Positions 1 to 40,157 of a stretch of 40,157 bases of DNA are shown here, one piece after another. The first letter of the stretch is position 1; every line of letters starts with the position of its first letter. A program made the position numbers and the translations under genes. Under the pieces are notes generated by a model. That model did no database searches and was not told where the DNA came from. It saw nothing but the letters and a program-made list of their open reading frames with translations. The DNA comes from a virus, in IMG/VR virus record IMGVR_UViG_3300033149_001491, positions 1-40,157 of that record, one strand, 5' to 3'.

Positions 1-114
1 TACCACGATAATTGCAAGGGTCAAACTGGTAGGATATATTGCTGGAAGGACAAGGAGAAAGTGGATGGCATATACAAAATAGTCTATTACCGGGACTGGG
101 TGAGTGTTTACCGA
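1..114. repeat. Direct terminal repeat, left copy
   Basis: The first 114 bases are identical to the last 114 bases of the window. One open reading frame crosses the join in frame. This is what a circular or circularly permuted phage genome looks like after assembly. A true short terminal repeat on the virion DNA is possible but cannot be told apart here. Confidence 0.95.
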
Positions 115-10272: not shown

Positions 10273-10719
10273 ATGGAACAGATAGAATTGGCATACTTTG
10301 CAGGATTCTTTGATGGAGAAGGTTCAGTATCCATAACCAAGGCAGGTTCCAAAAACCATTATAGGCTACAGTGTGGAATTACTCAAACCAACCACAGATT
10401 GTTAATATTGTTCAAGGATAATTTTGGTGGTGGCATAACCGAAATGTCCACCCATTATGAGGCTAGGTGGGGCAGGAAGCAATGTTGGAGGTGGTGGATA
10501 ACAGACACTAAGGCAGGGGAATTTCTGTCCATCATACTTCCCTACCTCAAACTCAAAAAGGGGGAGGCACAGGTTGCCATAGAATTCCTCACAACTAGAA
10601 CAGGACATAGAGGAAACATACCGACACAAGAATGGGAGGTAGCTATACAGGAAACATACATTTCAAGATTGCAGGATGCTAGAATACTATCATTGGTGGA
10701 GGAGCATAAGGATGACTGA
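10273..10719 (+). CDS. LAGLIDADG homing endonuclease (single motif)
   Basis: 148 residues. LAYFAGFFDGEGSV near the N-terminus is the LAGLIDADG helix with its catalytic acid; one copy means it should act as a homodimer. It is freestanding, not in an intron, and sits between a small gene and the methyltransferase, overlapping the latter slightly. GAGAGGATT precedes the ATG. It would make a double-strand break in phages lacking the gene. Confidence 0.85.
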   Translation: MEQIELAYFAGFFDGEGSVSITKAGSKNHYRLQCGITQTNHRLLILFKDNFGGGITEMSTHYEARWGRKQCWRWWITDTKAGEFLSIILPYLKLKKGEAQVAIEFLTTRTGHRGNIPTQEWEVAIQETYISRLQDARILSLVEEHKDD

Positions 10720-11524
10720 ATTCGCACCCGAACACACAAGAGATGAGGAAACTGGTTGGATTCTTTTTCCTAGGGATACTCAGTTTAGGAAACAGTTATT
10801 CTTTCCTGCTGAGGTTAACCAACATCCGGCTAAAATGAACCTACACCTACAGCAAGCCTGCATTGAGTATGTGGCTAGGGAAGGTGAGATAATACTAGAC
10901 CCATTTGGAGGGACAGGTAGCCTAATGATAGCCGCATTACAAGGCATTAGAGTAATCCTGCTAGAGATTGAGGATGGCTACCATCAACTACAACAACAGG
11001 CTAAGGATGAATTGGAAAGGCAGGTGCCTGGAGCCGGTAACCTGGTTATCCTAATACACGCCGATAATAGGATGGTAATGCCCATACCATGCAGCCACAT
11101 TATTACCTCACCACCTTATGCTAAGGCTCTACACCAAAAGACAATCCGTAAGGGTGCTGAGGATGATGACTTTGTTAAGATGGATAAACTGATAAACCAG
11201 TATAGTAAAAGTCCCAGGAATATTGGTGCTATGGATAACTTCCTATACAACCAGACAATGGAGAAGGTTTATAAACTCTGTTATGATTCCATTCTACCTG
11301 GAGGCACCTTAACTATTATACTCAAGGACAGGATAGAGAAGCAGAGAAGAATTAGCCTCACTGGTTGGGCTGATAAAGTATGTCAGAGGATAGGCTTCAA
11401 ACAGATACTACATGAGAGGTGGAAAACGCCTGGCATACAATTTACGGCCATTAACAAAGCACATGGGCTTGAGGTCGTGGAAGATGAGAGTATTATGATT
11501 TATAAAAAGGAGGGTAGTGATTAA
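10712..11524 (+). CDS. DNA methyltransferase (N4-cytosine or N6-adenine type)
   Basis: 270 residues from ATG 10712, chosen for the GGAGGAGCATAAG before it. Motif I DPFGGTGS (63-70) binds AdoMet; motif IV TSPPY (132-136) is the catalytic loop of amino-methyltransferases. Motif I precedes motif IV with no large recognition domain between them, so the order is like gamma-type or permuted enzymes rather than the common beta type. No restriction partner is seen; likely protects phage DNA or marks it for regulation. Confidence 0.85.
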   Translation: MTEFAPEHTRDEETGWILFPRDTQFRKQLFFPAEVNQHPAKMNLHLQQACIEYVAREGEIILDPFGGTGSLMIAALQGIRVILLEIEDGYHQLQQQAKDELERQVPGAGNLVILIHADNRMVMPIPCSHIITSPPYAKALHQKTIRKGAEDDDFVKMDKLINQYSKSPRNIGAMDNFLYNQTMEKVYKLCYDSILPGGTLTIILKDRIEKQRRISLTGWADKVCQRIGFKQILHERWKTPGIQFTAINKAHGLEVVEDESIMIYKKEGSD

Positions 11525-11708: not shown

Positions 11709-11913
11709 TCAATATAACCCCATAGGATACACAGAACTTCAGGTTGGGAACATTCCAACATTCAAACCATTTATTGGTTATGAGGTAATTGGTTTGGCTT
11801 TGTCAGAATACTCATTAGACGAGACATTAGAACCATTTGCCGTAACCAATGGAATCCTTGGTGGGTATGAGCAACCCATTATTTGGTGTAAAAGGAAGGT
11901 ATATGATAGGTAA
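11701..11913 (+). CDS. Small hypothetical protein
   Basis: 70 residues with no cysteine cluster or clear motif, proline- and glycine-containing and probably beta-rich. GGAGG precedes the ATG, which overlaps the previous gene. Its TAA overlaps the polymerase ATG, so translation of the polymerase is likely coupled to it. Confidence 0.6.
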   Translation: MDSQYNPIGYTELQVGNIPTFKPFIGYEVIGLALSEYSLDETLEPFAVTNGILGGYEQPIIWCKRKVYDR

Positions 11914-13571
11914 TGTATTTTGTTAATGACCCATCAGCCCTTAGCTACTATCTGGGTGAGAAGGAGCCAACACCAGGCTTTGCCAAAAAGCTGCTGTTTG
12001 AAACATCACATCCATTAGTAGCTGTGGATGTAGAAACCATTAGTCTCAAGGAAAGGATTGCCATTGGCATTGGTATAGCCATATCACCTACTGAGGCTTT
12101 TTATTTCAGGACATTTCCAGAGGAGAGTCAGGCTATTCCCTGGCACTTATTAAAGAGTACAGGAATCACCAAAATCTACCATAACTCACTGTTTGACCTT
12201 TCAGCACTTAGAGAATTTGAGGTGGATAATACCAATATCCTTGACACTAATGTTATGTCCAGGCTCCTCGGTTATAAGTTCAACAGCCTGGTAGACCTTG
12301 GTATGGTGCATCAACTACCTATCACAGAGGCTAAGGAGATGATGCCAAGCAAAGGGACAATGTTGAATGTTGACCCTGATGAGGTGGCTAGGAAATGTAT
12401 GTATGACTGTTTGGCTACCTATAGGCTGTATCAGGACTTTTGGGCTAGGGTTGACCAGCAATATGTTGCTACGGAAATGCAGGTTATCCCAATCTGTATT
12501 GAGATGAGTAATAGAGGATTAAAGATTGACCAGGAGATGAGGTCTGAGGTGGAAGGCCAGCTACAGGAGCAGGCTGATTATTACTACTCCTTATGTGATA
12601 ATGAGGGTTTTAATCCTGGCTCTCCTCAGCAGGTGGCTTATATGCTGGCTAAGAGAGGAGCTTACTCGGTATTTCACAGGTTACCATTTACCAGGAATTA
12701 TAGGAAGCGAAGCCTATCCACAGCAGTAGAAATCTTGGAAAAGATGGATGACCCTCTAGCATCTATAGTGTTGGCTTACAGAGGCTACAGCAAATTACTT
12801 TCAACCTACATCAGACCTTGGGCAAAGGAGGATAGAGCCACTACCAGATTTCATTTGGATGCTATTACAGGCAGACCATCCAGCACAGATAGGAATATGC
12901 AGAATATACCTGGAAAGAAATTGCAGGCTGAGAGAGGCTACCCTAACTGTAGAAATATACTATTGCCAGATAGTGGTACTTGGACGGATGTTGACTGGAG
13001 CCAACTTGAATTAAGGATACTAGCATACCTTAGTCAGGACAGGGAGATGCTCCATATCTATGAGGTTGGTGGTGATATACACCAAACCACAGCAGACTTT
13101 CTGGATATTCCTAGAGCCACAGCCAAAAATGTGAACTTTGCCTTGGTCTATGGTGCTACAGACCAGACGTTGATGGAAACTGCCCACATTAGGAGTATTG
13201 AGAGGGCTAGACAGTTAAGGGAAAACATATTCAGGCTGTTTACTGGAGTAGGTGATTGGATTGAAACTCTTAACCATGGAATACCATCCTTTGCCACTAC
13301 AGTATTTGGCAGGACTATCAGATTGCCTGACCCTGAGGAGGAGAGCATAGATGGTATATATCGTAAGAATATCAATTATAGGATTCAGGGTACAGCAGCA
13401 GAGATATTAAAGAGAGGGTTGATAATACTCAAGGACTTACCTCTAGCCCTACAAGTCCACGACGAGGTTCTTTGTGATGGCTACTTCTCTGAATCTACAT
13501 TTGAGCCTTTGGAGCATATAGCTCCGTTCAGGACACCAGTGGAGGTTAAGTATCTTGCCAGATGGGAATAA
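11913..13571 (+). CDS. Family-A DNA polymerase with 3'-5' exonuclease
   Basis: 552 residues. Exonuclease motifs: DVE (39-41), HNSLFDL (90-96) and YDCLATY (164-170). Polymerase motifs: motif A DVDWSQLELRIL (catalytic Asp361, Glu366), motif B R401-K405-F409 before YG, and motif C QVHDEV (514-519). It lacks the 5'-nuclease domain of cellular Pol I and is compact, as in phage replicative enzymes. Phe409 matches Phe762 of E. coli Pol I. Last gene of the plus-strand unit, facing the structural block. Confidence 0.95.
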   Translation: MYFVNDPSALSYYLGEKEPTPGFAKKLLFETSHPLVAVDVETISLKERIAIGIGIAISPTEAFYFRTFPEESQAIPWHLLKSTGITKIYHNSLFDLSALREFEVDNTNILDTNVMSRLLGYKFNSLVDLGMVHQLPITEAKEMMPSKGTMLNVDPDEVARKCMYDCLATYRLYQDFWARVDQQYVATEMQVIPICIEMSNRGLKIDQEMRSEVEGQLQEQADYYYSLCDNEGFNPGSPQQVAYMLAKRGAYSVFHRLPFTRNYRKRSLSTAVEILEKMDDPLASIVLAYRGYSKLLSTYIRPWAKEDRATTRFHLDAITGRPSSTDRNMQNIPGKKLQAERGYPNCRNILLPDSGTWTDVDWSQLELRILAYLSQDREMLHIYEVGGDIHQTTADFLDIPRATAKNVNFALVYGATDQTLMETAHIRSIERARQLRENIFRLFTGVGDWIETLNHGIPSFATTVFGRTIRLPDPEEESIDGIYRKNINYRIQGTAAEILKRGLIILKDLPLALQVHDEVLCDGYFSESTFEPLEHIAPFRTPVEVKYLARWE

Positions 13572-22542: not shown

Positions 22543-23619
22543 TTAGGCTACTATTGCCGAATCATCGGCATCAAAGATTCTGCCGAGACAAAGGGTAGAA
22601 CCAAGCAGAACTGAGCCATAGGTATCCATTCTCATACCACCAGCATTGTAGTCCTCCAGCCTATCCCAAGTCCACAGCTCATAGAAGTCTCCTTCACCCT
22701 CTGTGCCTCCATAGGCATAGGTAATGCCAGCCTCTCTGGCTAGGACATTACCAAGTTTGACACAAAAGACGGAATAGGTCAGGTCTGAGCTATACTTGGC
22801 TCTCTTATTGCTGGTTCCACCGGTTCCAGTACCATCTTCCTCTCCTACCAGATAATCAGTCCTGACCAGCGGTATGCCCATAAAGAACAGGATTGGCTTA
22901 CCAAGGTCGTTGATGCCTCTGGTAATCAGGGAATAATGGTAGGTCTCGTTGCTGGATACTGCATAGGTAAAACCTCGCTCATCGTAGGCAGCATCAAAGC
23001 GGATACCAATCTGAGGTGGAATCCAAATCTCATCCACACCATACCTCATATTATCAATCTGGGTTCTGAGGTACAACAGGGATAAGGCACCGGACTCCAT
23101 GTCCATGTTCTGCTTATTGTTGGTGTTGTCGGTAGTTGTCCAAGGTGAGCCTCTCTCGGCGGCTAGGGCATGAAGTCCATCAAACTGAGTTGGTGTGCCT
23201 CCATAAGTGGTATCACCATAGACGATTCTATCACCAGCCTTCCGCTTGAGACCTTTCTCCATTTCCAGCAGCACCTGGGCTTTATAGTCATTATAGGTGC
23301 CATAGATGTTCTGGACATATCTATCCAGCTTCCTCTGTAGATACATATAACGGAGAGTGGACTCAACCTCGGTGTAGTCAACATCCTCGCCCCAAACCAA
23401 CTGGTCACCAACATCAGCCTCTGATACGGCGTCCTCGGTTCCAGTGGACTCTCTTAACCATTCTATTTTGAGACCGGTTCCGGCTGCCTGCCCTACGGGC
23501 AAACGCTCCAAAGGGTTATTGCGTTTTATATCCTCCTCAAAGACGCCTGGAATCTTTGTGGATTGTGTCAGCTTTTGAGCCTCGGCAAGGGTTTTCCAAT
23601 GGCCTCCACTATTTGCCAT
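22543..23619 (-). CDS. Major capsid protein (probable HK97 fold)
   Basis: 358 residues, directly after the scaffold gene, the canonical place for the coat protein. About 30-120 contain extended, hinge-like segments (VGQAAGTGLKIEWLRE; VESTLRYMYLQRKLDRYV), with later beta-rich and helical parts (DEIWIPPQIGIRFDAAY; YGSVLLGSTLCLGRIF). No protease is seen, so maturation may rely on the separate scaffold. It assembles into the icosahedral head. AAGGAGG precedes the ATG. Confidence 0.8.
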   Translation of the reverse strand: MANSGGHWKTLAEAQKLTQSTKIPGVFEEDIKRNNPLERLPVGQAAGTGLKIEWLRESTGTEDAVSEADVGDQLVWGEDVDYTEVESTLRYMYLQRKLDRYVQNIYGTYNDYKAQVLLEMEKGLKRKAGDRIVYGDTTYGGTPTQFDGLHALAAERGSPWTTTDNTNNKQNMDMESGALSLLYLRTQIDNMRYGVDEIWIPPQIGIRFDAAYDERGFTYAVSSNETYHYSLITRGINDLGKPILFFMGIPLVRTDYLVGEEDGTGTGGTSNKRAKYSSDLTYSVFCVKLGNVLAREAGITYAYGGTEGEGDFYELWTWDRLEDYNAGGMRMDTYGSVLLGSTLCLGRIFDADDSAIVA

Positions 23620-23633
23620 ATTACTTGACCTCC

Positions 23634-24281
23634 TTATTCAACTTTGGCTGGAGCCTTAGCCCCTATTCGGTGTCCACGCTCCTCATGCTCCTCCAGAATT
23701 CTTCTAGCTCTATCCAAGGGAGTTTCCGGAGCTGTGCCACCACCAGATTTACCACCATCATAATTGGCAGGTTTAGCTTTTACATCTCTACCAAATACTT
23801 TGGCAGCATCTTCCAATTGCCTGAGTTGGTCAAGGGTTTTGTCCTTTAATGATTCCTCTGTAGCACCAGCACCTATGAGGCTTTGGCGCACACGTTCAGC
23901 CAGCTCACTTTCATATTGGCTGAGCTTCTCCTTGTGGGAGCCTAGTTCTGTTTCCAACTCACCCACCCTCGTCTTATGGGTGTCATAGTCCTTATACTGC
24001 TCGGTGAGGTTATCCCTCTCCGCCTGAGCTTGGAGAAGTTGCTGTTTAGATTCCTCCCGGAGTCTATTAGCCTCGGCAAGGTCTGTTTGGAACTTTCCTT
24101 TTTCAGTTTCCCAGTCTTGCTCTATCTTCTCCTTACTCCCTTTTACCGCCAACAGGTCAGCTTCCTTCACGAAGCGAGTAGTCTTACCTTCTACAGGAAT
24201 ATCTACTGAGCCATCCTGGTTAAAGGTTAGGTTTACTCCCTCCGCTCCAGTTGTTCCCTGTCCGGCATTTTCCTCAGTCAT
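23634..24281 (-). CDS. Scaffolding protein
   Basis: 215 residues: acidic N-terminus, a long coiled coil (about 50-150, Glu/Gln/Lys-rich with regular leucines), then a Gly/Pro-rich linker and a basic helical end. This is the usual form of phage scaffold proteins, which guide capsid assembly and leave or are cut. It lies directly before the capsid gene behind its own promoter. TAGGAGGTAACACT precedes the ATG. Confidence 0.8.
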   Translation of the reverse strand: MTEENAGQGTTGAEGVNLTFNQDGSVDIPVEGKTTRFVKEADLLAVKGSKEKIEQDWETEKGKFQTDLAEANRLREESKQQLLQAQAERDNLTEQYKDYDTHKTRVGELETELGSHKEKLSQYESELAERVRQSLIGAGATEESLKDKTLDQLRQLEDAAKVFGRDVKAKPANYDGGKSGGGTAPETPLDRARRILEEHEERGHRIGAKAPAKVE

Positions 24282-24434: not shown

Positions 24435-27400
24435 TTATAGTCTCTTACCAACACTCCTGCTAATCTGTTTAAAGGCTTCCTCACCGGCTGGAGTTTGGAA
24501 GCTGGATACTCTACCCCAGAAATAGAGCCAGCCATCAAGGTAGGGATTGGCATATCTCAGGGCTTTTCTGGCCTCACTAACATCAGAGCGGAAGGCTGAG
24601 ACCAGTTTTCTACCATCAGCCCTGGTTATATTCTTAATTACATCCTGTCTGGCTAAGTCCTGATTAACTCTTTCCAGGTATAAAAACTCATTTATTAGCC
24701 TTTGTTCCTCCTCCTCATAATTGCTCAGGACTTTTTGCCATACCTGGTTATACTTGCTAATATATTGCTCATTAACCTCTCTCCTGATAGCCTCTAATGG
24801 AGTTTGGTGCTGACTAAGGAAGGATTCCCATTCAGATTTCCACTGGTCTGGAACAGCCTCCTCTACAGCAGTCCTTTCAGCCCAGAAGGTTTCCCAATCC
24901 TGTCTTAATTCTCCTGTCTCAGGGTCTCTAATCTCCTTAACCTCAATGTCAAAGTAGAGGTTCATTAGCTCTTTTAACGGATGCAAAACTGGAACTGGTA
25001 TGCCCTGCTCCTCAAAATACTTTCTCCTCTCATCTAGTTTGAGTAATGGATTCTCCTCCTGCTTCTGGTCTATAAAGGCTCTCCTATCACTATAGAGGTT
25101 AGAGACTCTAGATACATAGTCTTTGGTGGATAAACCTCCTGTTAAGGCTTCCCTCTCCAGCTTAACCACCTCAGCCCTCTGGTTCCCAACATACCTTTCA
25201 ATCTCATCCCAATCAAGGGTAAGTTTATCAGCCACTAATTGTTGCTTACCTGGATATAAAGTGGAGGCTAGGGTTTGCCATTTCCAATAATCCAACTCCT
25301 GCAAGAACATCTGGTCTTCCGGAGACATACCTCCAACCATATCCCAAATTCTATGGCCATGTAGCCTTAACCATTTTTGCTGGTCTGGGGTATAGCCATA
25401 TTTCTCCTCTATATACTTGGTGATTGTATCATAGAGTTGCCTTTGCTCTGGATGTCTTAGCCTGGCTAGTCCTGACTGCTCAAATAATAAGGATAAGGCT
25501 CCTACAGTTCTGCGGGATTCATCCCAAACAGCCTGTTCTTCATCGGTTAGCTCCTCTCCAGCATTTCTCTTGGCATTGATTACTGAGGCATCATAACCTC
25601 TATTGGTTACTTCTCTCATTATCATATAATTCCTAAACCGTTCTCCAAATATATGGTCGGTGAGGAGCTTGATAAACTCATTATCAGGAGCTATGGCTTG
25701 GGCTATCATTAGAGGAGACTTCCAGATTGCTGGAATAACCTCTCCCATCTGAGGCTCCAAGCCACCAAACATGGCTAGAGGTATGCCAATATGGGCACCT
25801 GGATAGAAGCCATAGCGGGTGAGGAAGTCATTAAATTCTAGGAGGCTGGTGGCCCCCTCATAAGCATCATAGTATTCAGGATAGTCCCTTCTTGACAGCC
25901 TGGTGGTTAGGGTGCCATAGATAGTTCCTCTAAATGGATTGACTTCAACACTGGTTCCTGCTACTGGGATATAGCCATAGTCAGTATTATCCTGCCATCT
26001 TTCATAGGCAGTAAAGGTTCCTGGATGCCTAATAAATGAGCGGGGTAGCCAGAACCATCTCTGGGACTCATAGCGCCAGAAGGGATAAATGGCTTTCATT
26101 ATGGAGTCAAATACATTGGCATTGGAGTAGTCGGTATATTCTTTGTAATACCATTTTTGGGCTTCATCCATAGCCTGTTGTCTGAGGTCTTGTAAGCCTT
26201 GATAATCAGATTTTAGCTTAATTGAAGGCTTACCAGTAATGAGTTTTGCTTTTGGTAAATTTATATTGGTAACCGTTATTTCAGCCATCTTTATTGGAGC
26301 TTTATTAGTTGTTATTATACCCTTATCCACAAGGCTCTTTACTATCCCAGCTCCCTCATCAGTTGCCAAATCTATATGGACTGTCCGCCCTCTAGCCTTA
26401 GATAATGCTTCCAAGTATAACTCTGTACCAAGACCTTGCCTACGAAATTCCTCAGCAACATTTATACCCTCAATTTTCATAGTATTTTTGGTCATTCTAT
26501 ATTGGATAAAATTACCTGTAACATTACCTTTGGTATCATAATCCCTTAATATAGTAGAGCCAGATGGATGTAACTCCTCCCTCAATATAAGTTTAGTAAC
26601 AGGCTTCTTACCAACCATACCTGGTTCAAATGCCAACTTCTCCACCATATCAGCAGTTTCATCCACATACCTACCAATCTCGGCTACCTCATTATCAGGA
26701 AGCAACTTGGCATGGTAGAGATGGTGTAAATCCTCTCTAACAGCCTTCATCTCTAGTTGTTTGGAGGTCATCCAGCTAACTGCTTCTGGATTAACCCTCA
26801 AACTCCTGACTAGCTGGTCATAAACATCACCAACAGCTTCTCTGGTAAAGCCTTCATCTCCAGTTCTTACCATAGCCATAACATATTCTATAAAGCCATC
26901 TCTATCATTGACTATGGTGAGGTTGTCCATAATAGCTCTGGATAGGTCATCACCTTGAGCACCCACCAGCCGGCCCACATCATAAGGAGTAAGGACTCTA
27001 TCAGTAACTTTAATAGCTGGTCTGGAGAATGGTTGGATACCAGCAGCCATATCTACAGCCTGCAAACTTCTGGTTATATCTCCATCCAGCTTCATCATTT
27101 GGAGGTTAAGGTCGTGGTATTGACTATCTATATTGCGGTAGAAATCATCCCACCAATCACTGGTTAGGTCTTTTCTACCTACTTTGGCAAAGGTCTCTCT
27201 ACGCCAAGCCATATTCTCAGCACGGAACTTGTCAGCCAGTAATCTCTTGGACTCTAACAGGTCAAATAACCTTTGAGACCTGTCAGCCCAATCCTTACCA
27301 AAATTGAATTTGGTTACGTCAGCCCTCATCTTACCTAACAAGGTTTCCAGATTATTACCTGACTTTTCCATAAACTCCAGAATATCGTCATAAATCTTGT

Positions 27401-30293
27401 CAAAATGAGCCCGCCTCTCGGCCAATGGTAGTCCTCTACTCCTGATGGTAGCTTGAGCCATTATCTGTTTTGGAGTGGCTCCATAGACCTGGCTGGCTAT
27501 GTTGAGGTTAACCATCAGGTGGGCCATTTCCTCTGGATTTCTTACCTCCAGCTTGGCTAACTCATCGGTTAGGGCTTGGAATTGCTTGGTGGCTAGTTCA
27601 GCTCCTCTAAGGTACTCTTCTACCAATCTACTATTAGCATCTCTCATTACCTTATTAACTGACCTAATGCCATCAACATATAAGGTATTATCGTCAAATT
27701 CCTTGATAATAAAGTCCCTTACACTATTAGGTAAATCAGGATGCTCTTTAAGGATGTTGTTTACTTCTTTCCTATAAATAGATTTACGGGTAAACAAATC
27801 TTTAACAGACCTAATACTATCCAGGTCTAGGGTGGTTTTGGCATCTACCACAGCCTGTCTTAGCTCTCTAACCAGCTTCTTGTCAACTAGTTGTGGTAAT
27901 CTGCCCTCAGCCCGGACAATGGCTTCAAACTTCTCTCCACCCATCTCTTTGAACAGGACTAGGTATTTCTGACCTACAAAGTTTCTCCTCAAGTCCATAC
28001 CAAATCCGCCAGGCAATCTTACCAGGCCTGTATAAAGTTTGTCTGCCCATTCCTTCTGTCCTACCACAGCTAGTTGGAGTATCCAATTATTCCATTCTTC
28101 CTCACCACCTCTCCTTGTAAGTTTGCCCATAGTCTCAGAGACTCCAAGGGCAGGATTAACCAAGTCAGGGTCAACAGCAAGCCCTTTACTAATATGGGCA
28201 AACCTATCAGTAGTCATTCTCCTTGGGAATACACCACCTAGTATTGACCTCCAATAATCCTCAATAACATTCATTGGGCCATACATACCAAAGGTTAGGT
28301 ATGATTCGGCAGTAGGTCTAATAATTGTTTGCTCCACATATTTACGCCATACAGCCTGAACCTTTAACTCAGTTCCAGCTATAAAGCTCTGGATTCTGGT
28401 AGCCTGCTTCAACCATTCGGCCTGCTCCATTTGGCTAATATAGTAACGGAAATTCCTCTTAACCAGTGCATTAAGAGCCTTACCTGGATTACTCAATCTG
28501 GCAAATGCCTTAGCCTCGGCTACTATGTTACCGGCTCTACGGCTTAACAGGTTAGCAGCCTGGTTAAATAGTTTTGGCTCACCGCCTCTCAATCCAAATA
28601 TTTCCAATATCCTACCAGCACCTTCGTTAACTGTCATTAGCTTGGCAGTCTTGCTACCATATTTCTGGAATACAGATTCAAATATGGCATTAACATCACT
28701 AACCATTTCTCTGGTAATTTGTTCTCTGGTTAGTCCTGCTCCCAATCTCTCAGACCATCTCAGTATGGTATCCTGGTCTAATGGATTGTGCATTAGCAAG
28801 GCTCTACCAAATTGGGCTAATTCATCGGTTGCCTGAGGATTGTCAAAAGCATATCGGATAGAACGGTTGGCTATCTTAGTCCAATCCTTCATAGTCATAC
28901 CACGGTTGACCAGCTTGCCTTTACCAGCAAACTTCTCCAGGCTTACCTTTGCCCATTTACCACTCCAATCAGCAGCTATCAAGGCTCTCTGTGATATGGT
29001 CTTTGGCATCTTACCAGCTAGCCATTTAATACCATTGAATGGTGCTTCAAATGGGGCAAAGATAACTCTATTAGCCTTGTTCAAAACTGTGGCAAAGCGG
29101 GCAAACCTACCTGTCATACCGGCCGTCATTGAGGCTCCTAAGGTAAATACACTGAGCCACATTAGAGGGTCGGTAATGGTTTCCATTACCATATATTTCA
29201 GCAGGAACTCAGGAACACCACTGAATGGGGCATCCCATTCCTCCCAAGCTTTCTGGAGGGCTTGCCAATCACTATCAGAGGTAGCTCTATGCTGTTGGTA
29301 TAAATGTTCTATATCAGGGATAAAGGTTTTATACAGAGCCGCTGCCATTGGCTGGCTGGTAGTCTCAAAATACTTTCTGCCGACCTCCAACAGGGCTACT
29401 CCGGGCATTACCGCCATTTCCTTGAGGAAGTCAGTTAGCTTGTAATCGGGCATCTCGGCTATGGCTTTCCTGGTCTGGCCCAACTGTTCATTGTAGAGTT
29501 TGGATTCAGCCAATATCTCTTTGGCTTGTGCCTCAATCTTTTCCACAGCGGACAAATCAGCATATTCTGGATAAAGCTGGTCAAATAGCTCCTGCCATTC
29601 TGATTCTGGTAATACTGGTTCAGGCATTTCTGGAGCTTGTAATGATTGTAATATGGATTGGACTGTAGCTACTTGGAGGGTAACAGGGCCAGTGATACCT
29701 GGTGCTGGAACTTCCAGCTCAGGCAGTAGCTCTGGGGCCATCTCCTCACCAGCTTCTAATGGCTGTCCGGCCCTAACTGATTGGAATATCCCTTCCACAG
29801 CCTTCCTAACATCATCCAACTCAGCCTGAGTCATTCCTTCTGGAGGGGTAAAGGTCTTAAATACATCCTCTACATTAGCAAAAAACGTACTAGGGTCTTT
29901 TGGAGTAGCTCCAGCCTCGGAAATCTGTTGTAGAGCTAGAAGGTTCTGTGGAACCACACTATAAATATTGGCATAGAATTGTTCCTTAGCCATATTGGTG
30001 GCCACATCCTCCAGGTCAGTCTTGACCTGGCCCATTCTCTGTTTGATGGCTGGAGTGGTTGGTGATAGTGGGCCCCAACTAAGTATGTATGGCTCAGCTA
30101 TTTTGGCTATGGCTGATATTGGTTCTGGTAATTTCTCAGTCCAGGCTCCACGTTCCTGGAGACTGATAAGTTCAGTTTCCAGTTCCTGCCCTCTAGTGCC
30201 AAGCCGCTCTAGTCTGGTGAAGTGGCTCTCAGCCTTTTTCTGCCAATCATCCAACAACTTTTGGAATGGACTTTTCTGTTCTCCATTAGGCAT
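24435..30293 (-). CDS. Giant virion-type protein with an embedded GNAT-like domain
   Basis: 1952 residues, the largest gene (about 15% of the genome). The first 130 residues are helical and coiled-coil-like; about 374-430 contain a hydrophobic segment (LSVFTLGASMTAGM and the following helices) that could insert in membranes. About 1225-1345 look like a GNAT acetyltransferase core, with EEFRRQGLGTELYLEA as the acetyl-CoA loop. About 1380-1520 are an aromatic domain (IYPFWRYESQRWFWLPRSF). The rest is long helices. Its place after the portal suggests an internal or ejection protein. Confidence 0.65.
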   Translation of the reverse strand: MPNGEQKSPFQKLLDDWQKKAESHFTRLERLGTRGQELETELISLQERGAWTEKLPEPISAIAKIAEPYILSWGPLSPTTPAIKQRMGQVKTDLEDVATNMAKEQFYANIYSVVPQNLLALQQISEAGATPKDPSTFFANVEDVFKTFTPPEGMTQAELDDVRKAVEGIFQSVRAGQPLEAGEEMAPELLPELEVPAPGITGPVTLQVATVQSILQSLQAPEMPEPVLPESEWQELFDQLYPEYADLSAVEKIEAQAKEILAESKLYNEQLGQTRKAIAEMPDYKLTDFLKEMAVMPGVALLEVGRKYFETTSQPMAAALYKTFIPDIEHLYQQHRATSDSDWQALQKAWEEWDAPFSGVPEFLLKYMVMETITDPLMWLSVFTLGASMTAGMTGRFARFATVLNKANRVIFAPFEAPFNGIKWLAGKMPKTISQRALIAADWSGKWAKVSLEKFAGKGKLVNRGMTMKDWTKIANRSIRYAFDNPQATDELAQFGRALLMHNPLDQDTILRWSERLGAGLTREQITREMVSDVNAIFESVFQKYGSKTAKLMTVNEGAGRILEIFGLRGGEPKLFNQAANLLSRRAGNIVAEAKAFARLSNPGKALNALVKRNFRYYISQMEQAEWLKQATRIQSFIAGTELKVQAVWRKYVEQTIIRPTAESYLTFGMYGPMNVIEDYWRSILGGVFPRRMTTDRFAHISKGLAVDPDLVNPALGVSETMGKLTRRGGEEEWNNWILQLAVVGQKEWADKLYTGLVRLPGGFGMDLRRNFVGQKYLVLFKEMGGEKFEAIVRAEGRLPQLVDKKLVRELRQAVVDAKTTLDLDSIRSVKDLFTRKSIYRKEVNNILKEHPDLPNSVRDFIIKEFDDNTLYVDGIRSVNKVMRDANSRLVEEYLRGAELATKQFQALTDELAKLEVRNPEEMAHLMVNLNIASQVYGATPKQIMAQATIRSRGLPLAERRAHFDKIYDDILEFMEKSGNNLETLLGKMRADVTKFNFGKDWADRSQRLFDLLESKRLLADKFRAENMAWRRETFAKVGRKDLTSDWWDDFYRNIDSQYHDLNLQMMKLDGDITRSLQAVDMAAGIQPFSRPAIKVTDRVLTPYDVGRLVGAQGDDLSRAIMDNLTIVNDRDGFIEYVMAMVRTGDEGFTREAVGDVYDQLVRSLRVNPEAVSWMTSKQLEMKAVREDLHHLYHAKLLPDNEVAEIGRYVDETADMVEKLAFEPGMVGKKPVTKLILREELHPSGSTILRDYDTKGNVTGNFIQYRMTKNTMKIEGINVAEEFRRQGLGTELYLEALSKARGRTVHIDLATDEGAGIVKSLVDKGIITTNKAPIKMAEITVTNINLPKAKLITGKPSIKLKSDYQGLQDLRQQAMDEAQKWYYKEYTDYSNANVFDSIMKAIYPFWRYESQRWFWLPRSFIRHPGTFTAYERWQDNTDYGYIPVAGTSVEVNPFRGTIYGTLTTRLSRRDYPEYYDAYEGATSLLEFNDFLTRYGFYPGAHIGIPLAMFGGLEPQMGEVIPAIWKSPLMIAQAIAPDNEFIKLLTDHIFGERFRNYMIMREVTNRGYDASVINAKRNAGEELTDEEQAVWDESRRTVGALSLLFEQSGLARLRHPEQRQLYDTITKYIEEKYGYTPDQQKWLRLHGHRIWDMVGGMSPEDQMFLQELDYWKWQTLASTLYPGKQQLVADKLTLDWDEIERYVGNQRAEVVKLEREALTGGLSTKDYVSRVSNLYSDRRAFIDQKQEENPLLKLDERRKYFEEQGIPVPVLHPLKELMNLYFDIEVKEIRDPETGELRQDWETFWAERTAVEEAVPDQWKSEWESFLSQHQTPLEAIRREVNEQYISKYNQVWQKVLSNYEEEEQRLINEFLYLERVNQDLARQDVIKNITRADGRKLVSAFRSDVSEARKALRYANPYLDGWLYFWGRVSSFQTPAGEEAFKQISRSVGKRL

Positions 30294-30294
30294 T

Positions 30295-32001
30295 TTACAG
30301 CTCTCCTAATCCAGTAGTAGGTTCGGCAACTTCCCTAGGCATAACCTCCCTCAAGATACCACCCGTCTCAGCTCCAGCCTCTCTGCCAGGAGTAGGTCGC
30401 TGAGTTGGCTGTTGGGGTAACCCTATCTCCTGTTCTACACTAGCAGCCAGTTTGTCATACAGGGCGGCGGCATCCATATCACCGGCTCTCCTTAGCCTAC
30501 CAGCTTGGGCTCTATAGGCTAGTATAGCATCAACCATTATTGCTTTGGGATGGGATAGGGCATCTTCCTCCCTAACCTGGGCTTGGGTTCTTATAGTATC
30601 CTGAACCTCGGGGAACATTCTGTCCATTATCCATCTCTGAGGTAATCTAAAATTGGGATTAAGCATCCTAGCAATGGTGGCTCTTTGAACCATGTAGCCA
30701 GGGATTTGTATTTCACTGGTAACCTTGAATCTGAATTCCTCTGGTAGGTTGGTAGGCATTTTGAATCTATGAGGGCTGAACTTGTTAGCCTTCATCATGT
30801 TATACCAGAAGTTGTCCACATCACTTAGGACTCCCTCTAGCCCCTCCTCATAAGGAGTTAGTTGTTGCAGTGCTGAGGAGGCTACATTAGCCATAGCCAG
30901 ATAACTTAGTTGCTGTTGCAGGTTGCCATGTAATACCCATGGAAACAACCCTCGTTGTATCATATTGGAGTATTCAAACATGGCAGTCCTTAGTTCTACT
31001 GGTATTGGAGGAGGTTGGACAGCCCCTATCTCATCGTTGGGACCAAGGTGGAAAATGGCTCCCCACTTATCAATATTCTCCTCAGTCAGGATAGTAGTAT
31101 CACTGGTGGTCTTTTCATACCATCTATGCTGGGCTGCTGACCTGGCTGCTTGTTGGATGAAACTCAACATTTTGTTATAGGTCAGGGTCATCCGCTCATT
31201 GGTAGCTACTATGGCCTCACCAAAGTTTTCCTGCCATTTCTTGTTTTGGGCTATAGCACCTTCATCGGGTAAGCCTCCACAGGGAGAGACAAACACTGGC
31301 ATAGTAGGCTCTCCCAATTTCTGCATTAGCCTGTTAATATATATATCCTTCTCAGGAGGCTTGACGTATTCCTGACCCAATACAATGGCATTGGTAATAT
31401 CTCCATCGTCATCAAAGCCCCAGTAATCATAAAGACTGGTATTATGGGTAATCCTCTGCTTGGTTTCCCAACCCTGTAACTTGGCCTTCCTATTAGCCTC
31501 AGCAGGAGTCATTGTGTAGATATGTGCTACCTCAATTAGACCATCTGAGCCAAACTCTGGATAGACTTCTATCGGATTCCAAATGTCAGCCCAGACTCGG
31601 TCTGGAGTAGCCATAGCAAAGACACTGTACCAGCCAGTGGCAAGTAGGAGGCTAACTAACTTGGATGTAAATCTCTGCCTACCTGACCTTCTATACCTTT
31701 CCTCCTCATTGGCCCAGCGTTTGATAAAGTATGACTCTAATTGGCTGGTAGCTGTTACTTCCTCTGGGGTAAATTCCTCACCCTCAATCTTGTGGCTGAT
31801 AATGCTACTGATTAAGAGCCATCTGCCAAGGTTATATCCAGTCTTAGGGTCATTAGAGACTACGGACTCCATACCCTCCTGTTTGAGCTTGTCCTCTAGC
31901 TGGAGGATTTTATACCAGTCCCTAATCTTACGGTCTCTGGTTGACCATTTCCCTTTCAACTTACCACATTTCTGTATCAAATCATCCGCAGTTAAAGCCA
32001 T
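30295..32001 (-). CDS. Portal protein
   Basis: 568 residues between the terminase and the giant protein, as expected for the portal. Early helical wing, a mixed domain (for example GWYSVFAMATPDRV and WADIWNPIEVYPEFG), a long helix-rich stem region and a disordered Pro/Thr-rich C-terminus are visible. It forms the twelve-subunit ring through which DNA is packaged. Its stop overlaps the giant gene's start region, so the two are translationally coupled. GGAGGGTAAT precedes the ATG. Confidence 0.8.
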   Translation of the reverse strand: MALTADDLIQKCGKLKGKWSTRDRKIRDWYKILQLEDKLKQEGMESVVSNDPKTGYNLGRWLLISSIISHKIEGEEFTPEEVTATSQLESYFIKRWANEEERYRRSGRQRFTSKLVSLLLATGWYSVFAMATPDRVWADIWNPIEVYPEFGSDGLIEVAHIYTMTPAEANRKAKLQGWETKQRITHNTSLYDYWGFDDDGDITNAIVLGQEYVKPPEKDIYINRLMQKLGEPTMPVFVSPCGGLPDEGAIAQNKKWQENFGEAIVATNERMTLTYNKMLSFIQQAARSAAQHRWYEKTTSDTTILTEENIDKWGAIFHLGPNDEIGAVQPPPIPVELRTAMFEYSNMIQRGLFPWVLHGNLQQQLSYLAMANVASSALQQLTPYEEGLEGVLSDVDNFWYNMMKANKFSPHRFKMPTNLPEEFRFKVTSEIQIPGYMVQRATIARMLNPNFRLPQRWIMDRMFPEVQDTIRTQAQVREEDALSHPKAIMVDAILAYRAQAGRLRRAGDMDAAALYDKLAASVEQEIGLPQQPTQRPTPGREAGAETGGILREVMPREVAEPTTGLGEL

Positions 32002-32133: not shown

Positions 32134-33714
32134 TTACCATCGCCAGCCCCCTCGGCCGACATAGCCTACCTTCCTTCTATTAGGCGATAAACAAACCGCA
32201 CCTACAGCAAAGCTCATAAAGATGTCATTAGGGCCAACTACAGCTACCTTATCACCAATAAGTCTATGGTTACGACATTGATGGATAAATTCAATGTCAT
32301 AACACTCCAGGTCATAGAGATACTTCTCCACCTGCTGGAGCATATAGTCCTTGTTGCCTGAGGTAGTTCTCCAACCAGGGCTCCTTGTCTCTATACCACT
32401 AATAATGTCCTTCCTCATATAGATTGGCTTACGACCTTTCAATAGTTCAGTAATAGCCAAGCCATGACTATTATCCTCCCAGGTAATTTCAGCCCGGCCA
32501 TAATAGTCGCTGGCGGCTACAGCCTTACGGACAGTTACCTCTGGAGCATAGAGTCCCACATCTCTGGCACAATACCTAATTCTGTTATTACCATTCTCAT
32601 CCTGGATAAAGCATAGGACTGTTATGGCTGTCTGAGTAATTCTGGCCTGGCCAGGGTCTATAGCTACCAGATACTTTTTATCCTTTTCCGGAGGAAACCA
32701 GATTTGGAGATTATCCCTGCTCTGAGGAGCTGGGTAACAATTCTCAGCCAGCTTATCCGTAGTGTTGGTGTCAAAATACATATCACCAGTGGCTAGAAAG
32801 CAGGAGACATCATCCTCTGGAAATTCCTGTTTGAATAAAGTTCTGGTCTCTCCTCTCCTTTTCAGACTCTCCATTACCTTCATCATCCAACGGCGCCATC
32901 TTATCTGGTCAAAACTGAGTCCTTTTAGGTAGTGGAGAGTTTCCTCCTCAGTATTGAGGTTGAACTCTGGCTTATCTGTTTCTGGTATCTCCTTAATCCT
33001 GGGGTCATCTAGGGATATGGAGTATTCTGGATGCATGAACCAGGCAAAGAAATGAGGAGTAAATATGGAGCTGCCCTTCTTAGCATCAATATACCAATCG
33101 TGGAACTCATTTTCCTCACCGTTGGGAGTTGAAAAACTATCCACTGTACCACCAGCCGGTATTCTTGCCATGGCTGGGGCTATTACCCTCTCAGTAGCCT
33201 CAGGGACATAAAAGGCATGCTCATCCAACAATAGGTGGTGGATAGCTTCGGTTCTGCCTGCTGTTTTACTCCTGGCTGATGCTATATAGATGGAGCTAAT
33301 ACCAATCAGCTTACCATCAACAAGGAATTTGAATGTTTTTAACAAATCCGAATCATGATGGATTTCAGGAAAACCTGGTATTCCTAAATTGGCTAAATGG
33401 TTATAAAAGAAGCTAACCTTGCCCAATAGCCGTTGGGTAATAAAGTCCTCATAGGCAACTAAAACAGTATTTGTACCTGGAGTAGTTAAAGTATCTGCCA
33501 GTCTATTGGCTATCCTCTCTGTAGAAAAACCTATCTGAGCTGGCTTGACCCAAATATCAAAGCCAGTCTGAGTCCTATCCACCTCATCTTGAATAGGGTT
33601 GTAGACAAAAGGAACTATCCGCCTCTGCTTGGTCTCAACCACAAAGAAGGACTCAATAAGTTTTCTCTTATTTGTAATCAGCTCCCTAAATTTTTCCTTA
33701 ACATCGGTAGCCAT
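32134..33714 (-). CDS. Terminase large subunit
   Basis: 526 residues. N-terminal ATPase: Walker A-like KPAQIGFST (57-65; lacking the usual GK), Walker B LLLDE (161-165) and coupling motif DSFSTPNG (192-199). C-terminal RNase H-fold nuclease: AIDPG (351-355), an acidic TWEDNSHG segment and Asp497 in PNDIFMSFA near the end. It cuts and pumps phage DNA into the prohead at the portal. Headful or unique-end packaging cannot be decided here. Confidence 0.9.
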   Translation of the reverse strand: MATDVKEKFRELITNKRKLIESFFVVETKQRRIVPFVYNPIQDEVDRTQTGFDIWVKPAQIGFSTERIANRLADTLTTPGTNTVLVAYEDFITQRLLGKVSFFYNHLANLGIPGFPEIHHDSDLLKTFKFLVDGKLIGISSIYIASARSKTAGRTEAIHHLLLDEHAFYVPEATERVIAPAMARIPAGGTVDSFSTPNGEENEFHDWYIDAKKGSSIFTPHFFAWFMHPEYSISLDDPRIKEIPETDKPEFNLNTEEETLHYLKGLSFDQIRWRRWMMKVMESLKRRGETRTLFKQEFPEDDVSCFLATGDMYFDTNTTDKLAENCYPAPQSRDNLQIWFPPEKDKKYLVAIDPGQARITQTAITVLCFIQDENGNNRIRYCARDVGLYAPEVTVRKAVAASDYYGRAEITWEDNSHGLAITELLKGRKPIYMRKDIISGIETRSPGWRTTSGNKDYMLQQVEKYLYDLECYDIEFIHQCRNHRLIGDKVAVVGPNDIFMSFAVGAVCLSPNRRKVGYVGRGGWRW

Positions 33715-34145: not shown

Positions 34146-34279
34146 TACCTTACCTCATTCCTCTCTATAACCTGGACTAACTCCATCTGTCCACAGATAG
34201 GACATTTCCACAATACCTGCTTATCAGTCTTTGTAGCTACCCTCATTGGAGTACCACACTTATTACAGGTTTCAGCCAT
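34145..34279 (-). CDS. Small zinc-ribbon protein
   Basis: 44 residues from ATG 34279, chosen for GAGAGGAAAA upstream. CNKCGTPMRV near the start and CPICGQMELV near residue 27 form a zinc ribbon. It overlaps the end of the terminase small-subunit gene. Confidence 0.55.
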   Translation of the reverse strand: MAETCNKCGTPMRVATKTDKQVLWKCPICGQMELVQVIERNEVR

Positions 34280-34817
34280 GTTTTTCCTCTCTTGACAGCC
34301 TAATCTCAAGGACAGTTTTTGTCCAATCCAGAGCATCCTCTCTAACCTTACCATCACCAGCCAATAACTGTCTGAGGAGGGCTAGGTGTTGTGGAGTGTA
34401 GAATTTCCTGATGATAGCTAGGTATTGCTGTTCCCTTTCATTAAGAGGTTTGCCGGTAGCATCCTTATACAGAACTTTGAAATCCTTGGTAAGGACAAGT
34501 TTGAAATTACGGGTGAATTCAATGTCCAGAAGTTGGTTGGATAAATCCTTTCTTACATCTGGTATCTTGGATACAAACTCCACAAAGTCAGGGTCATTTT
34601 GGGTCCAACGGGTGAGGGTTTTATCATGGATACCAGTCAGTCTTTTGGCCTCTACTCTGGAGAATCCTGCCACAAGATAGCCAAGGTAAGCTGCCTTCTT
34701 GTCTCCATCCATATACAGTGGCAGTAGGCTTTGTATCATACCTTCTGTAGGACTTGTCCCAGTCTGTTCCATCAACTCCGCACTATTCTCGGTTAAATTC
34801 CTAGAGTGCTTTGTCAT
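34272..34817 (-). CDS. Probable terminase small subunit
   Basis: 181 residues from ATG 34817, chosen because GAGGTGG precedes it and the promoter at 34836 would leave the longer frame untranscribed. A helix-turn-helix-like unit (YLVAGFSRVEAKRLTGI, then KTLTRWTQNDPDFVEF) is followed by helices for oligomerisation. Small terminases bind the packaging start site and hand DNA to the large subunit. The large subunit lies four small genes downstream. Confidence 0.65.
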   Translation of the reverse strand: MTKHSRNLTENSAELMEQTGTSPTEGMIQSLLPLYMDGDKKAAYLGYLVAGFSRVEAKRLTGIHDKTLTRWTQNDPDFVEFVSKIPDVRKDLSNQLLDIEFTRNFKLVLTKDFKVLYKDATGKPLNEREQQYLAIIRKFYTPQHLALLRQLLAGDGKVREDALDWTKTVLEIRLSREEKHG

Positions 34818-34835
34818 TATCCACCTCTTGTCTCT

Positions 34836-34864
34836 AGTATAGCACAAATAAGCTCAGATTGCAA
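34836..34864 (-). promoter_or_regulatory. Promoter with possible operator in the spacer
   Basis: Minus strand: TTGCAA (34864-34859), 17 bp, TGC before TATACT (34841-34836). The spacer holds TAGCACAAATAAGCTC (34840-34855, plus strand), which matches 12 of 16 bases of the operator family copy at 37182. A repressor there would block the packaging genes. Repeated element D lies just upstream. Confidence 0.65.
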
Positions 34865-39893: not shown

Positions 39894-40157
39894 ATGTTGT
39901 TTGAAGTTATCATTACCAGAACCTGCAGTGCCGGTAAATACTGGCAGACTTATGACCAGACCAGAAAAGTCTTTGATACCAAACAGGAAGTATCAAGGTT
40001 TCTAAGTCAGGAATACTACTACGCCAAGACCACTATTCCTGTCTACCACGATAATTGCAAGGGTCAAACTGGTAGGATATATTGCTGGAAGGACAAGGAG
40101 AAAGTGGATGGCATATACAAAATAGTCTATTACCGGGACTGGGTGAGTGTTTACCGA
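39894..40157 (+). CDS. Hypothetical protein, N-terminal part (junction-spanning gene)
   Basis: Starts at ATG 39894 after AAGGAGGTGG and remains open to the window end; it continues as bases 115-153, giving 100 residues in total. The N-terminus is a strand (LFEVIITRT), followed by a helical part (KQEVSRFLSQEYYYA). No family recognised. Its uninterrupted frame across the join supports circularity. Confidence 0.75.
   Translation, partial: MLFEVIITRTCSAGKYWQTYDQTRKVFDTKQEVSRFLSQEYYYAKTTIPVYHDNCKGQTGRIYCWKDKEKVDGIYKIVYYRDWVSVYR
40044..40157. repeat. Direct terminal repeat, right copy
   Basis: Exact second copy of bases 1-114. Removing it gives a unit genome of 40,043 bp. The copy lies inside a coding frame rather than in a non-coding end, which favours assembly overlap of a circular molecule over a biological packaging repeat. 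Confidence 0.95.

What the first reader, a model, noticed from the sequence alone, without database searches (positions are those of the whole stretch)
24435..30293. 1952-residue protein with an embedded GNAT acetyltransferase-like domain, after the portal
A single gene takes about 15% of the genome and joins coiled coils, a hydrophobic segment, a GNAT loop (RRQGLGTEL near residue 1284) and an aromatic domain. If packaged and injected, it could deliver an acetyltransferase into the host at infection, a strategy known for some large polyvalent phage proteins. No separate tape-measure gene exists.
Basis: partly seen in the sequence, partly recalled or inferred. Interest (0 to 1): 0.72.

Follow-up and report, generated by a model that had tools for sequence, protein, structure and literature searches.

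The report
Phage giant protein with swappable enzyme
A giant protein encoded among the shell-building genes of an uncultured virus of microbes carries a real acetyltransferase-type enzyme domain in a slot where related viruses carry other probable enzymes or nothing, which suggests an exchangeable payload, perhaps delivered into the host at infection.

Summary
The gene is real: minus strand, 24435-30293, 1952 aa, in a 40-kb phage genome with a 114-bp terminal repeat. The GNAT domain (residues ~1224-1346) is also real: Pfam Acetyltransf_1 above its cut-off, a GNAT topology in AlphaFold2, and GNATs as Foldseek hits at probability 1.00. The GNAT is not a fixed part of the protein. In about 25 relatives from viral metagenomes, the order TerL, putative portal, giant gene, g215, MCP recurs where the contig allows. 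The backbone is conserved over its length, but residues ~1222-1356 form one hypervariable slot. It holds a GNAT here and in two relatives, ADP-ribosyltransferase-like domains in about ten, and a short linker in nine. Sister proteins with nearly identical flanks differ in slot content. The same GNAT, 67% identical, sits in a giant protein of a phage whose TerL, portal, MCP and backbone show no detectable similarity, so the domain travels on its own. I read it as interchangeable effector cargo of a virion-associated, polyvalent-like protein. Packaging, injection and catalysis are inferred, not shown, and the closest solved structure is a non-catalytic acetyl-CoA-binding domain. The concept (polyvalent and MuF proteins) is known; this backbone family and slot appear undescribed in the libraries searched.

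The parts
24435..30293 (-). giant late gene, 1952 aa; polyvalent-like virion-associated protein (predicted)
   Evidence: ORF and translation; conserved family of 1.5-2.6 kaa proteins in about 25 viral contigs
26256..26624 (-). GNAT acetyltransferase-fold domain, residues 1224-1346; acetyl-CoA loop RRQGLG at 1284-1289
   Evidence: Pfam 5.8e-6; AF2 core pLDDT >80 with GNAT topology; Foldseek PDB/BFVD; 60-67% identical copies in L026 and L028
26226..26630 (-). hypervariable cargo slot, residues ~1222-1356, between conserved anchors
   Evidence: family alignment: only 5-10 of 21 relatives have letters here and mean identity is 0.11-0.19, against 0.4-0.8 for most of the neighbouring backbone
26640..26696 (-). 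upstream slot anchor, residues 1200-1218 (E-IxxIxRYxDxTAxxVE)
   Evidence: alignment of slot flanks
24438..26192 (-). downstream anchor and C-terminal backbone, residues 1368-1952 (RQxAMDEAxKWYYKE...), the most conserved part
   Evidence: A7 alignment; AF2 mean pLDDT 66.9, well modelled only in its last ~270 residues; no fold match in BFVD
26013..26087 (-). YPFWRYESQRWFWLPRSFIRHPGTF motif, residues 1403-1427; inteins sit inside this motif in four relatives (L021-L024)
   Evidence: intein profiles
29109..29192 (-). moderately hydrophobic conserved segment, residues 368-395
   Evidence: Kyte-Doolittle scan, maximum 1.15
30295..32001 (-). putative portal, 568 aa, just upstream of the giant gene
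   Evidence: position between TerL and the giant gene, conserved in relatives; no profile hit
32134..33714 (-). terminase large subunit
   Evidence: tblastn to annotated phage terminases, E to 2e-19
34272..34847 (-). probable terminase small subunit
   Evidence: PHROG 4102 E=3.7e-4
23634..24281 (-). 215-aa protein next to the MCP (scaffold/protease position)
   Evidence: conserved synteny; weak head maturation protease hit, E=0.038
22543..23619 (-). major capsid protein
   Evidence: PHROG 212 E=2.2e-12
1..114 (.). terminal direct repeat, left copy
   Evidence: identical to 40044-40157
40044..40157 (.). terminal direct repeat, right copy
   Evidence: identical to 1-114

Best explanation
The gene encodes a giant head-associated protein, made with the capsid module and sitting at the MuF position directly after the putative portal. 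It is most likely packaged and expelled into the host with the DNA. Its backbone does the phage's own constant job, probably assembly or genome ejection, while one slot near residue 1290 carries interchangeable effector cargo. In this phage the cargo is a compact GNAT that would use host acetyl-CoA to acetylate a host protein (RNA polymerase, ribosome or a defence component are plausible targets) at the start of infection; relatives carry ADP-ribosyltransferase-like cargo or none. Shown here: the GNAT fold, the conserved backbone, the slot, cargo turnover, horizontal transfer of the GNAT, and the gene position. Inferred: packaging, injection, catalysis and target.
For: GNAT fold: Pfam above cut-off, AF2 topology b-b-b-b-a-b-a-b-b with core pLDDT above 80, Foldseek GNATs at probability 1.00. 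Slot: one search shows it filled by GNAT (window, L005), ART-like domains (L006, L011, L013, L016, L017, L019, L020, L022, L023), a short linker (nine loci) or other sequence (L002/L018); at least nine changes of cargo state on a 21-tip backbone tree. Recent turnover: L005 (GNAT) and L008 (no cargo) have 88-90% nt-identical flanks; L033 (ART-like) and L034 (unrelated segment) share a 91% identical C-terminus. Cargo moves on its own: the window GNAT is 67% identical to that of L028 (E 1e-55), whose TerL, portal and MCP are not detectably similar and whose backbone gives no hhalign match. Conserved TerL-portal-giant-g215-MCP order, the place of MuF genes, whose product gp7 is in SPP1 capsids (PMC5576092). 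Literature: ART and GNAT domains in phage polyvalent proteins predicted to be injected (PMC5512222).
Against: No virion proteomics. The backbone has no recognised domain (no Pfam LPD, no MuF) and no fold match in BFVD. The nearest solved fold is the acetyl-CoA-binding domain of ICL2. Only one enzymatic domain is recognisable in the window protein itself. Portal identity is positional. Most ART calls rest on motifs; Pfam supports two, both under the curated cut-off, and profile searches of PDB with two ART-like groups gave nothing relevant.
Confidence: 0.58

Rival explanations
1. The GNAT domain is a non-catalytic acetyl-CoA-binding sensor or binding module, as in ICL2 or PanZ, which tunes the giant protein or reports host metabolic state.
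For: The best Foldseek matches are M. tuberculosis ICL2 (E 1e-5, TMq 0.58), and entries 4crz/4cry (from memory, PanD-PanZ complexes) are also matched.
Against: The acetyl-CoA loop has canonical V-x(4)-R-x-x-G-L-G spacing in the window; other slot occupants look like enzymes (ART-like; HExxH inserts elsewhere in the protein), and a slot that swaps with them fits effector cargo better.
Confidence: 0.17
2. The protein acts in the producing cell late in infection (capsid assembly or modification of phage or host proteins) and the GNAT is not delivered into the next host.
For: Encoded in the packaging/head module; nothing here tests packaging.
Against: Swappable and frequently absent cargo is hard to reconcile with a role in assembly; MuF and polyvalent precedents at this gene position are virion-associated (PMC5576092, PMC5512222).
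Confidence: 0.17
3. The giant protein is simply the phage's tape-measure or ejection protein and the slot only tolerates random insertions; the GNAT has no selected function.
For: No other late ORF exceeds 588 aa; nine relatives carry only a linker; near-identical contig L001 has a frameshift inside the GNAT loop.
Against: The GNAT is kept at 60-68% identity in three divergent phages, which points to selection on the domain itself; occupants recur as the same few domain kinds, such as the LYHGAP ART-like domain in L016, L020 and L033.
Confidence: 0.06

Closest known systems
Phage polyvalent proteins (Iyer et al. 2017, PMC5512222)
   Same: very large late-gene phage product beside the packaging genes; GNAT, ART and possibly zincin-like domains, the same effector kinds described there
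   Different: backbone matches none of Pfam's polyvalent-associated (LPD) models; here one fixed slot in a conserved backbone carries exchangeable cargo; the window copy shows only one enzymatic domain
MuF polymorphic toxins (PMC5576092)
   Same: gene directly downstream of the putative portal; conserved carrier plus variable effector, including ADP-ribosyltransferases
   Different: no MuF domain detected; cargo is internal, not C-terminal; much larger; no candidate small immunity gene follows at once
Phage T4 Alt and phiKMV-type Rac
   Same: Alt is an injected protein modifier (PMC5512222); Rac is a phage GNAT acting on host RNA polymerase (as reviewed in PMC7824862)
   Different: stand-alone enzymes; no sequence relationship tested or found here
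C-terminal GNAT-like domain of M. tuberculosis ICL2
   Same: closest solved fold (Foldseek E 1e-5)
   Different: cellular metabolic enzyme; about 20% identity; that domain binds acetyl-CoA and is, to my knowledge, regulatory

Membership tests
GNAT superfamily | profile match above curated cut-off | tested here: met
   PF00583 27.0 bits against 20.7
GNAT superfamily | GNAT fold | tested here: met
   AF2 topology and Foldseek probability 1.00 to GNATs
GNAT superfamily | Q/R-x-x-G-x-G/A acetyl-CoA loop | tested here: met
   RRQGLG at 1284-1289; L028 REQGLG and L005 RRKGIA also fit; L026 TRKGLG departs at the first position
GNAT superfamily | acyl transfer activity | not testable with these tools
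   needs a biochemical assay
phage polyvalent proteins | two or more domains of disparate biochemical activity in one chain | tested here: inconclusive
   window protein: one enzymatic domain recognised; L026 has GNAT plus ART-like; L006 and L023 have HExxH motif plus ART-like
phage polyvalent proteins | late-gene, portal-terminase phage context | tested here: met
   TerL, putative portal, giant gene, g215, MCP order in the window and relatives
phage polyvalent proteins | known polyvalent-associated domains | tested here: inconclusive
   none in the backbone by Pfam; ART-PolyVal in slots of L019 and L017 at E 9.6e-7 and 4e-4, under the cut-off
phage polyvalent proteins | injection with DNA | not testable with these tools
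   needs virion proteomics and an injection assay
MuF proteins | MuF domain | tested here: not met
   no Pfam or PHROG MuF hit
MuF proteins | gene immediately downstream of portal | tested here: inconclusive
   position fits; the 568-aa neighbour is a portal by position only
tail tape-measure protein | tape-measure profile and location in the tail module | tested here: not met
   no tape-measure hit for the giant protein; gene lies between putative portal and MCP

The most novel reading that the evidence does not exclude
Several phage lineages with unrelated packaging and capsid genes share a pool of mobile effector domains (GNAT, ADP-ribosyltransferase-like and others) that plug into an internal slot of otherwise fixed giant injected proteins, so that a phage can change its first-strike host-takeover enzyme by swapping one cassette of 100-400 aa.
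Probability: 0.45. Interest if true: 0.78.

Novelty: new variant of a known kind. Interest (0 to 1): 0.62.

Why it matters
Phage proteins that enter the cell before any phage gene is expressed are hard to find and their payloads hard to compare. A conserved backbone with one hypervariable slot gives natural with/without pairs (L005/L008, L033/L034) and a simple rule for finding new host-takeover or counter-defence enzymes: read what sits in the slot. It also shows an effector domain moving between phages whose packaging and capsid genes are not detectably related.

Tried and rejected
Relatives among cultured phages: none (tblastn of the protein and of its GNAT); plasmids: none for the GNAT. 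Bacterial and archaeal genomes (pattern-based scans with the C-terminal block and with the GNAT): none, so the host is unknown. Backbone identity by Pfam, PHROGs and fold search: nothing. Portal confirmation by profile: nothing. Purely vertical descent of the GNAT: rejected because its closest copy is in the least related phage. Homology of the L028 giant backbone: no match. MuF domain: considered and not found. A PDB-sequence hit for the window protein to an RNA polymerase gamma subunit (E=0.011) was treated as chance. Linking the LYHGAP ART-like group to the L017 ART by hhalign failed, so those ART calls stay at motif level.

Full report
WHAT IS THERE. The finding's coordinates hold a single 1952-codon ORF on the minus strand. 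The record is a 40157-bp IMG/VR viral contig with an exact 114-bp terminal direct repeat, so it is probably a complete genome. Reading along the minus strand the late genes are: probable TerS, TerL, a 568-aa putative portal, the giant gene, a 215-aa protein, the MCP, then smaller genes of which none exceeds 588 aa. The plus strand carries a family A DNA polymerase and an N6/N4-type DNA methylase.

THE GNAT IS REAL. Pfam Acetyltransf_1 matches residues 1263-1311 at E=5.8e-6, 27.0 bits against a curated cut-off of 20.7. A profile of four related domains finds acetyltransferases among PDB sequences (best E 7e-4). AlphaFold2 on residues 1215-1371 with a four-row alignment gives mean pLDDT 71.7, with the core near 80-92 and disordered ends, and the strand/helix order of a compact GNAT. 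Foldseek against PDB gives 43 matches with E<=0.001, all listed at probability 1.00 and GNAT-type; BFVD gives viral GNATs. One caution: the top PDB matches are the C-terminal domain of M. tuberculosis ICL2, which binds acetyl-CoA and to my knowledge regulates rather than catalyses.

IT IS CARGO IN A SLOT. The first scan returned L001 (near-identical) and L002 (55% identical overall). L002 is collinear over its whole length except that the GNAT is missing. A scan with the conserved C-terminal block returned 23 loci, most of them new, and later scans added L026, L028, L033 and L034. In a family alignment most of the backbone beyond residue 275 has 0.3-0.8 mean identity to the window, while residues ~1226-1350 align in only 5-10 of 21 relatives at 0.11-0.19. 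The slot contents are: GNAT in the window and L005; ART-like domains in L006/L007, L011, L013, L016, L017, L019 (two in tandem), L020, L022 and L023; a 35-57 residue stretch, mostly a proline-rich linker, in L003, L008, L009, L010, L012, L014, L015, L021 and L024; an unassigned ~80-aa segment in L002/L018. Pfam ART-PolyVal matches L019 at 9.6e-7 and L017 at 4e-4, both under the curated cut-off; the other ART calls rest on motifs alone, and profile searches of PDB with two of the groups were empty or irrelevant.

CARGO TURNS OVER FAST AND TRAVELS. On a backbone tree that leaves the slot out, at least nine changes of cargo state are needed for 21 tips. L005 and L008 are sisters with 88.5% and 90.1% nucleotide identity on the two sides of the slot, yet one has a GNAT (483 nt) and the other a linker (120 nt). 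L033 and L034 are 91% identical over the C-terminal block but carry unrelated slot segments. The window GNAT is 60% identical to that of L026, in the same slot of a backbone only 23-32% identical. It is 67% identical (E 1e-55) to one in L028, where a 2716-aa protein lies between a putative portal and an MCP; TerL, portal and MCP of the two phages show no pairwise similarity (best E 0.005), and the window family's C-terminal backbone profile has no hhalign match in that giant protein. The closest GNAT is thus in the least related phage, which is horizontal transfer of the domain. Its conservation across unrelated carriers also argues that the domain itself is under selection. L005's GNAT is a more distant lineage (hhalign E 7e-7). 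The LYHGAP ART-like domain shows a weaker form of the same pattern: 51% between L016 and L033 against 35% for the backbone.

HOW IT PROBABLY WORKS. The giant gene follows the putative portal and precedes the g215-MCP pair in the window and in nearly every relative long enough to show it. This is where MuF genes lie; MuF protein gp7 of SPP1 is in the capsid at one to two copies bound to the portal, and a MuF protein with ADP-ribosyltransferase activity is known (PMC5576092). Iyer et al. (PMC5512222) described phage polyvalent proteins with ART, GNAT and peptidase domains near late genes and predicted that they are injected; they noted two GNAT families, RimI-like, likely to act on proteins. The simplest reading is that the backbone serves the virion and the slot carries an effector used on entry, here an acetyltransferase. 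Steps shown: fold, slot, turnover, transfer, position. Steps inferred: packaging, injection, catalysis, target. Rivals are an acetyl-CoA sensor, an enzyme used only in the producing cell, or a selectively neutral insertion; the last is unlikely given the conservation of the domain.

KNOWN OR NEW. The idea of giant injected phage proteins with enzymatic domains is known. The backbone here matches no Pfam, PHROG or BFVD entry convincingly, has no cultured-phage relative at tblastn sensitivity, and shows an internal exchangeable slot with between-phage transfer of one occupant. I call it a new variant of a known kind. Limits: structural alignments are shallow, the relatives were found by pattern-based scans that miss divergent members, the portal is positional, the hosts are unknown, and no paper search can exclude an unheld description.

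Noticed in passing
L021, L022, L023, L024, within the motif matching window residues 1403-1410: About 300-aa insertions, most beginning with Cys or Ser and ending GN followed by Thr, lie inside the most conserved motif of the giant protein; two tested match intein splicing (E 1.3e-4 and 1.9e-3, under the curated cut-off) and one a LAGLIDADG model: probable inteins in a virion-associated protein, at slightly different insertion points.
   Followed up: partly
L006/L007 at the position of window residue ~868; L023 at ~990: Two further insertion sites of ~160 aa carrying HExxH motifs (YHEIFHD; AHEIAHT), possibly zincin-like peptidases as reported for polyvalent proteins; no Pfam support.
   Followed up: partly
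L001:12480-12527 (near-identical contig): Relative to the window one substitution and a 28-bp deletion remove the acetyl-CoA loop of the GNAT and shift the frame (stop after 1297 codons); otherwise one mismatch in ~12.5 kb. A real variant or an assembly error near the contig end cannot be told apart without reads.
   Followed up: partly
L026, giant protein upstream of the GNAT (KKFLYHGGPELEGDMLEAGYLTTDI): A second, ART-like motif at a different position of the same chain, so this relative may carry two effectors; no significant Pfam match.
   Followed up: partly
L028:3569-4132: An HNH endonuclease gene lies directly before the giant gene of this unrelated phage (PHROG 1985 E=3.8e-10), a possible homing nuclease that could help move cargo.
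   Followed up: no
L034 slot: A ~120-aa slot occupant (NIYHLRSPYRKQLDEMARTKKFDEG...) with no Pfam match, in a protein whose C-terminal block is 91% identical to that of ART-like-carrying L033: a candidate new effector domain.
   Followed up: partly
window 10676-11524 (+) and 11913-13571 (+): N6/N4-type DNA methylase and family A DNA polymerase with 3'-5' exonuclease on the strand opposite to the late genes.
   Followed up: no
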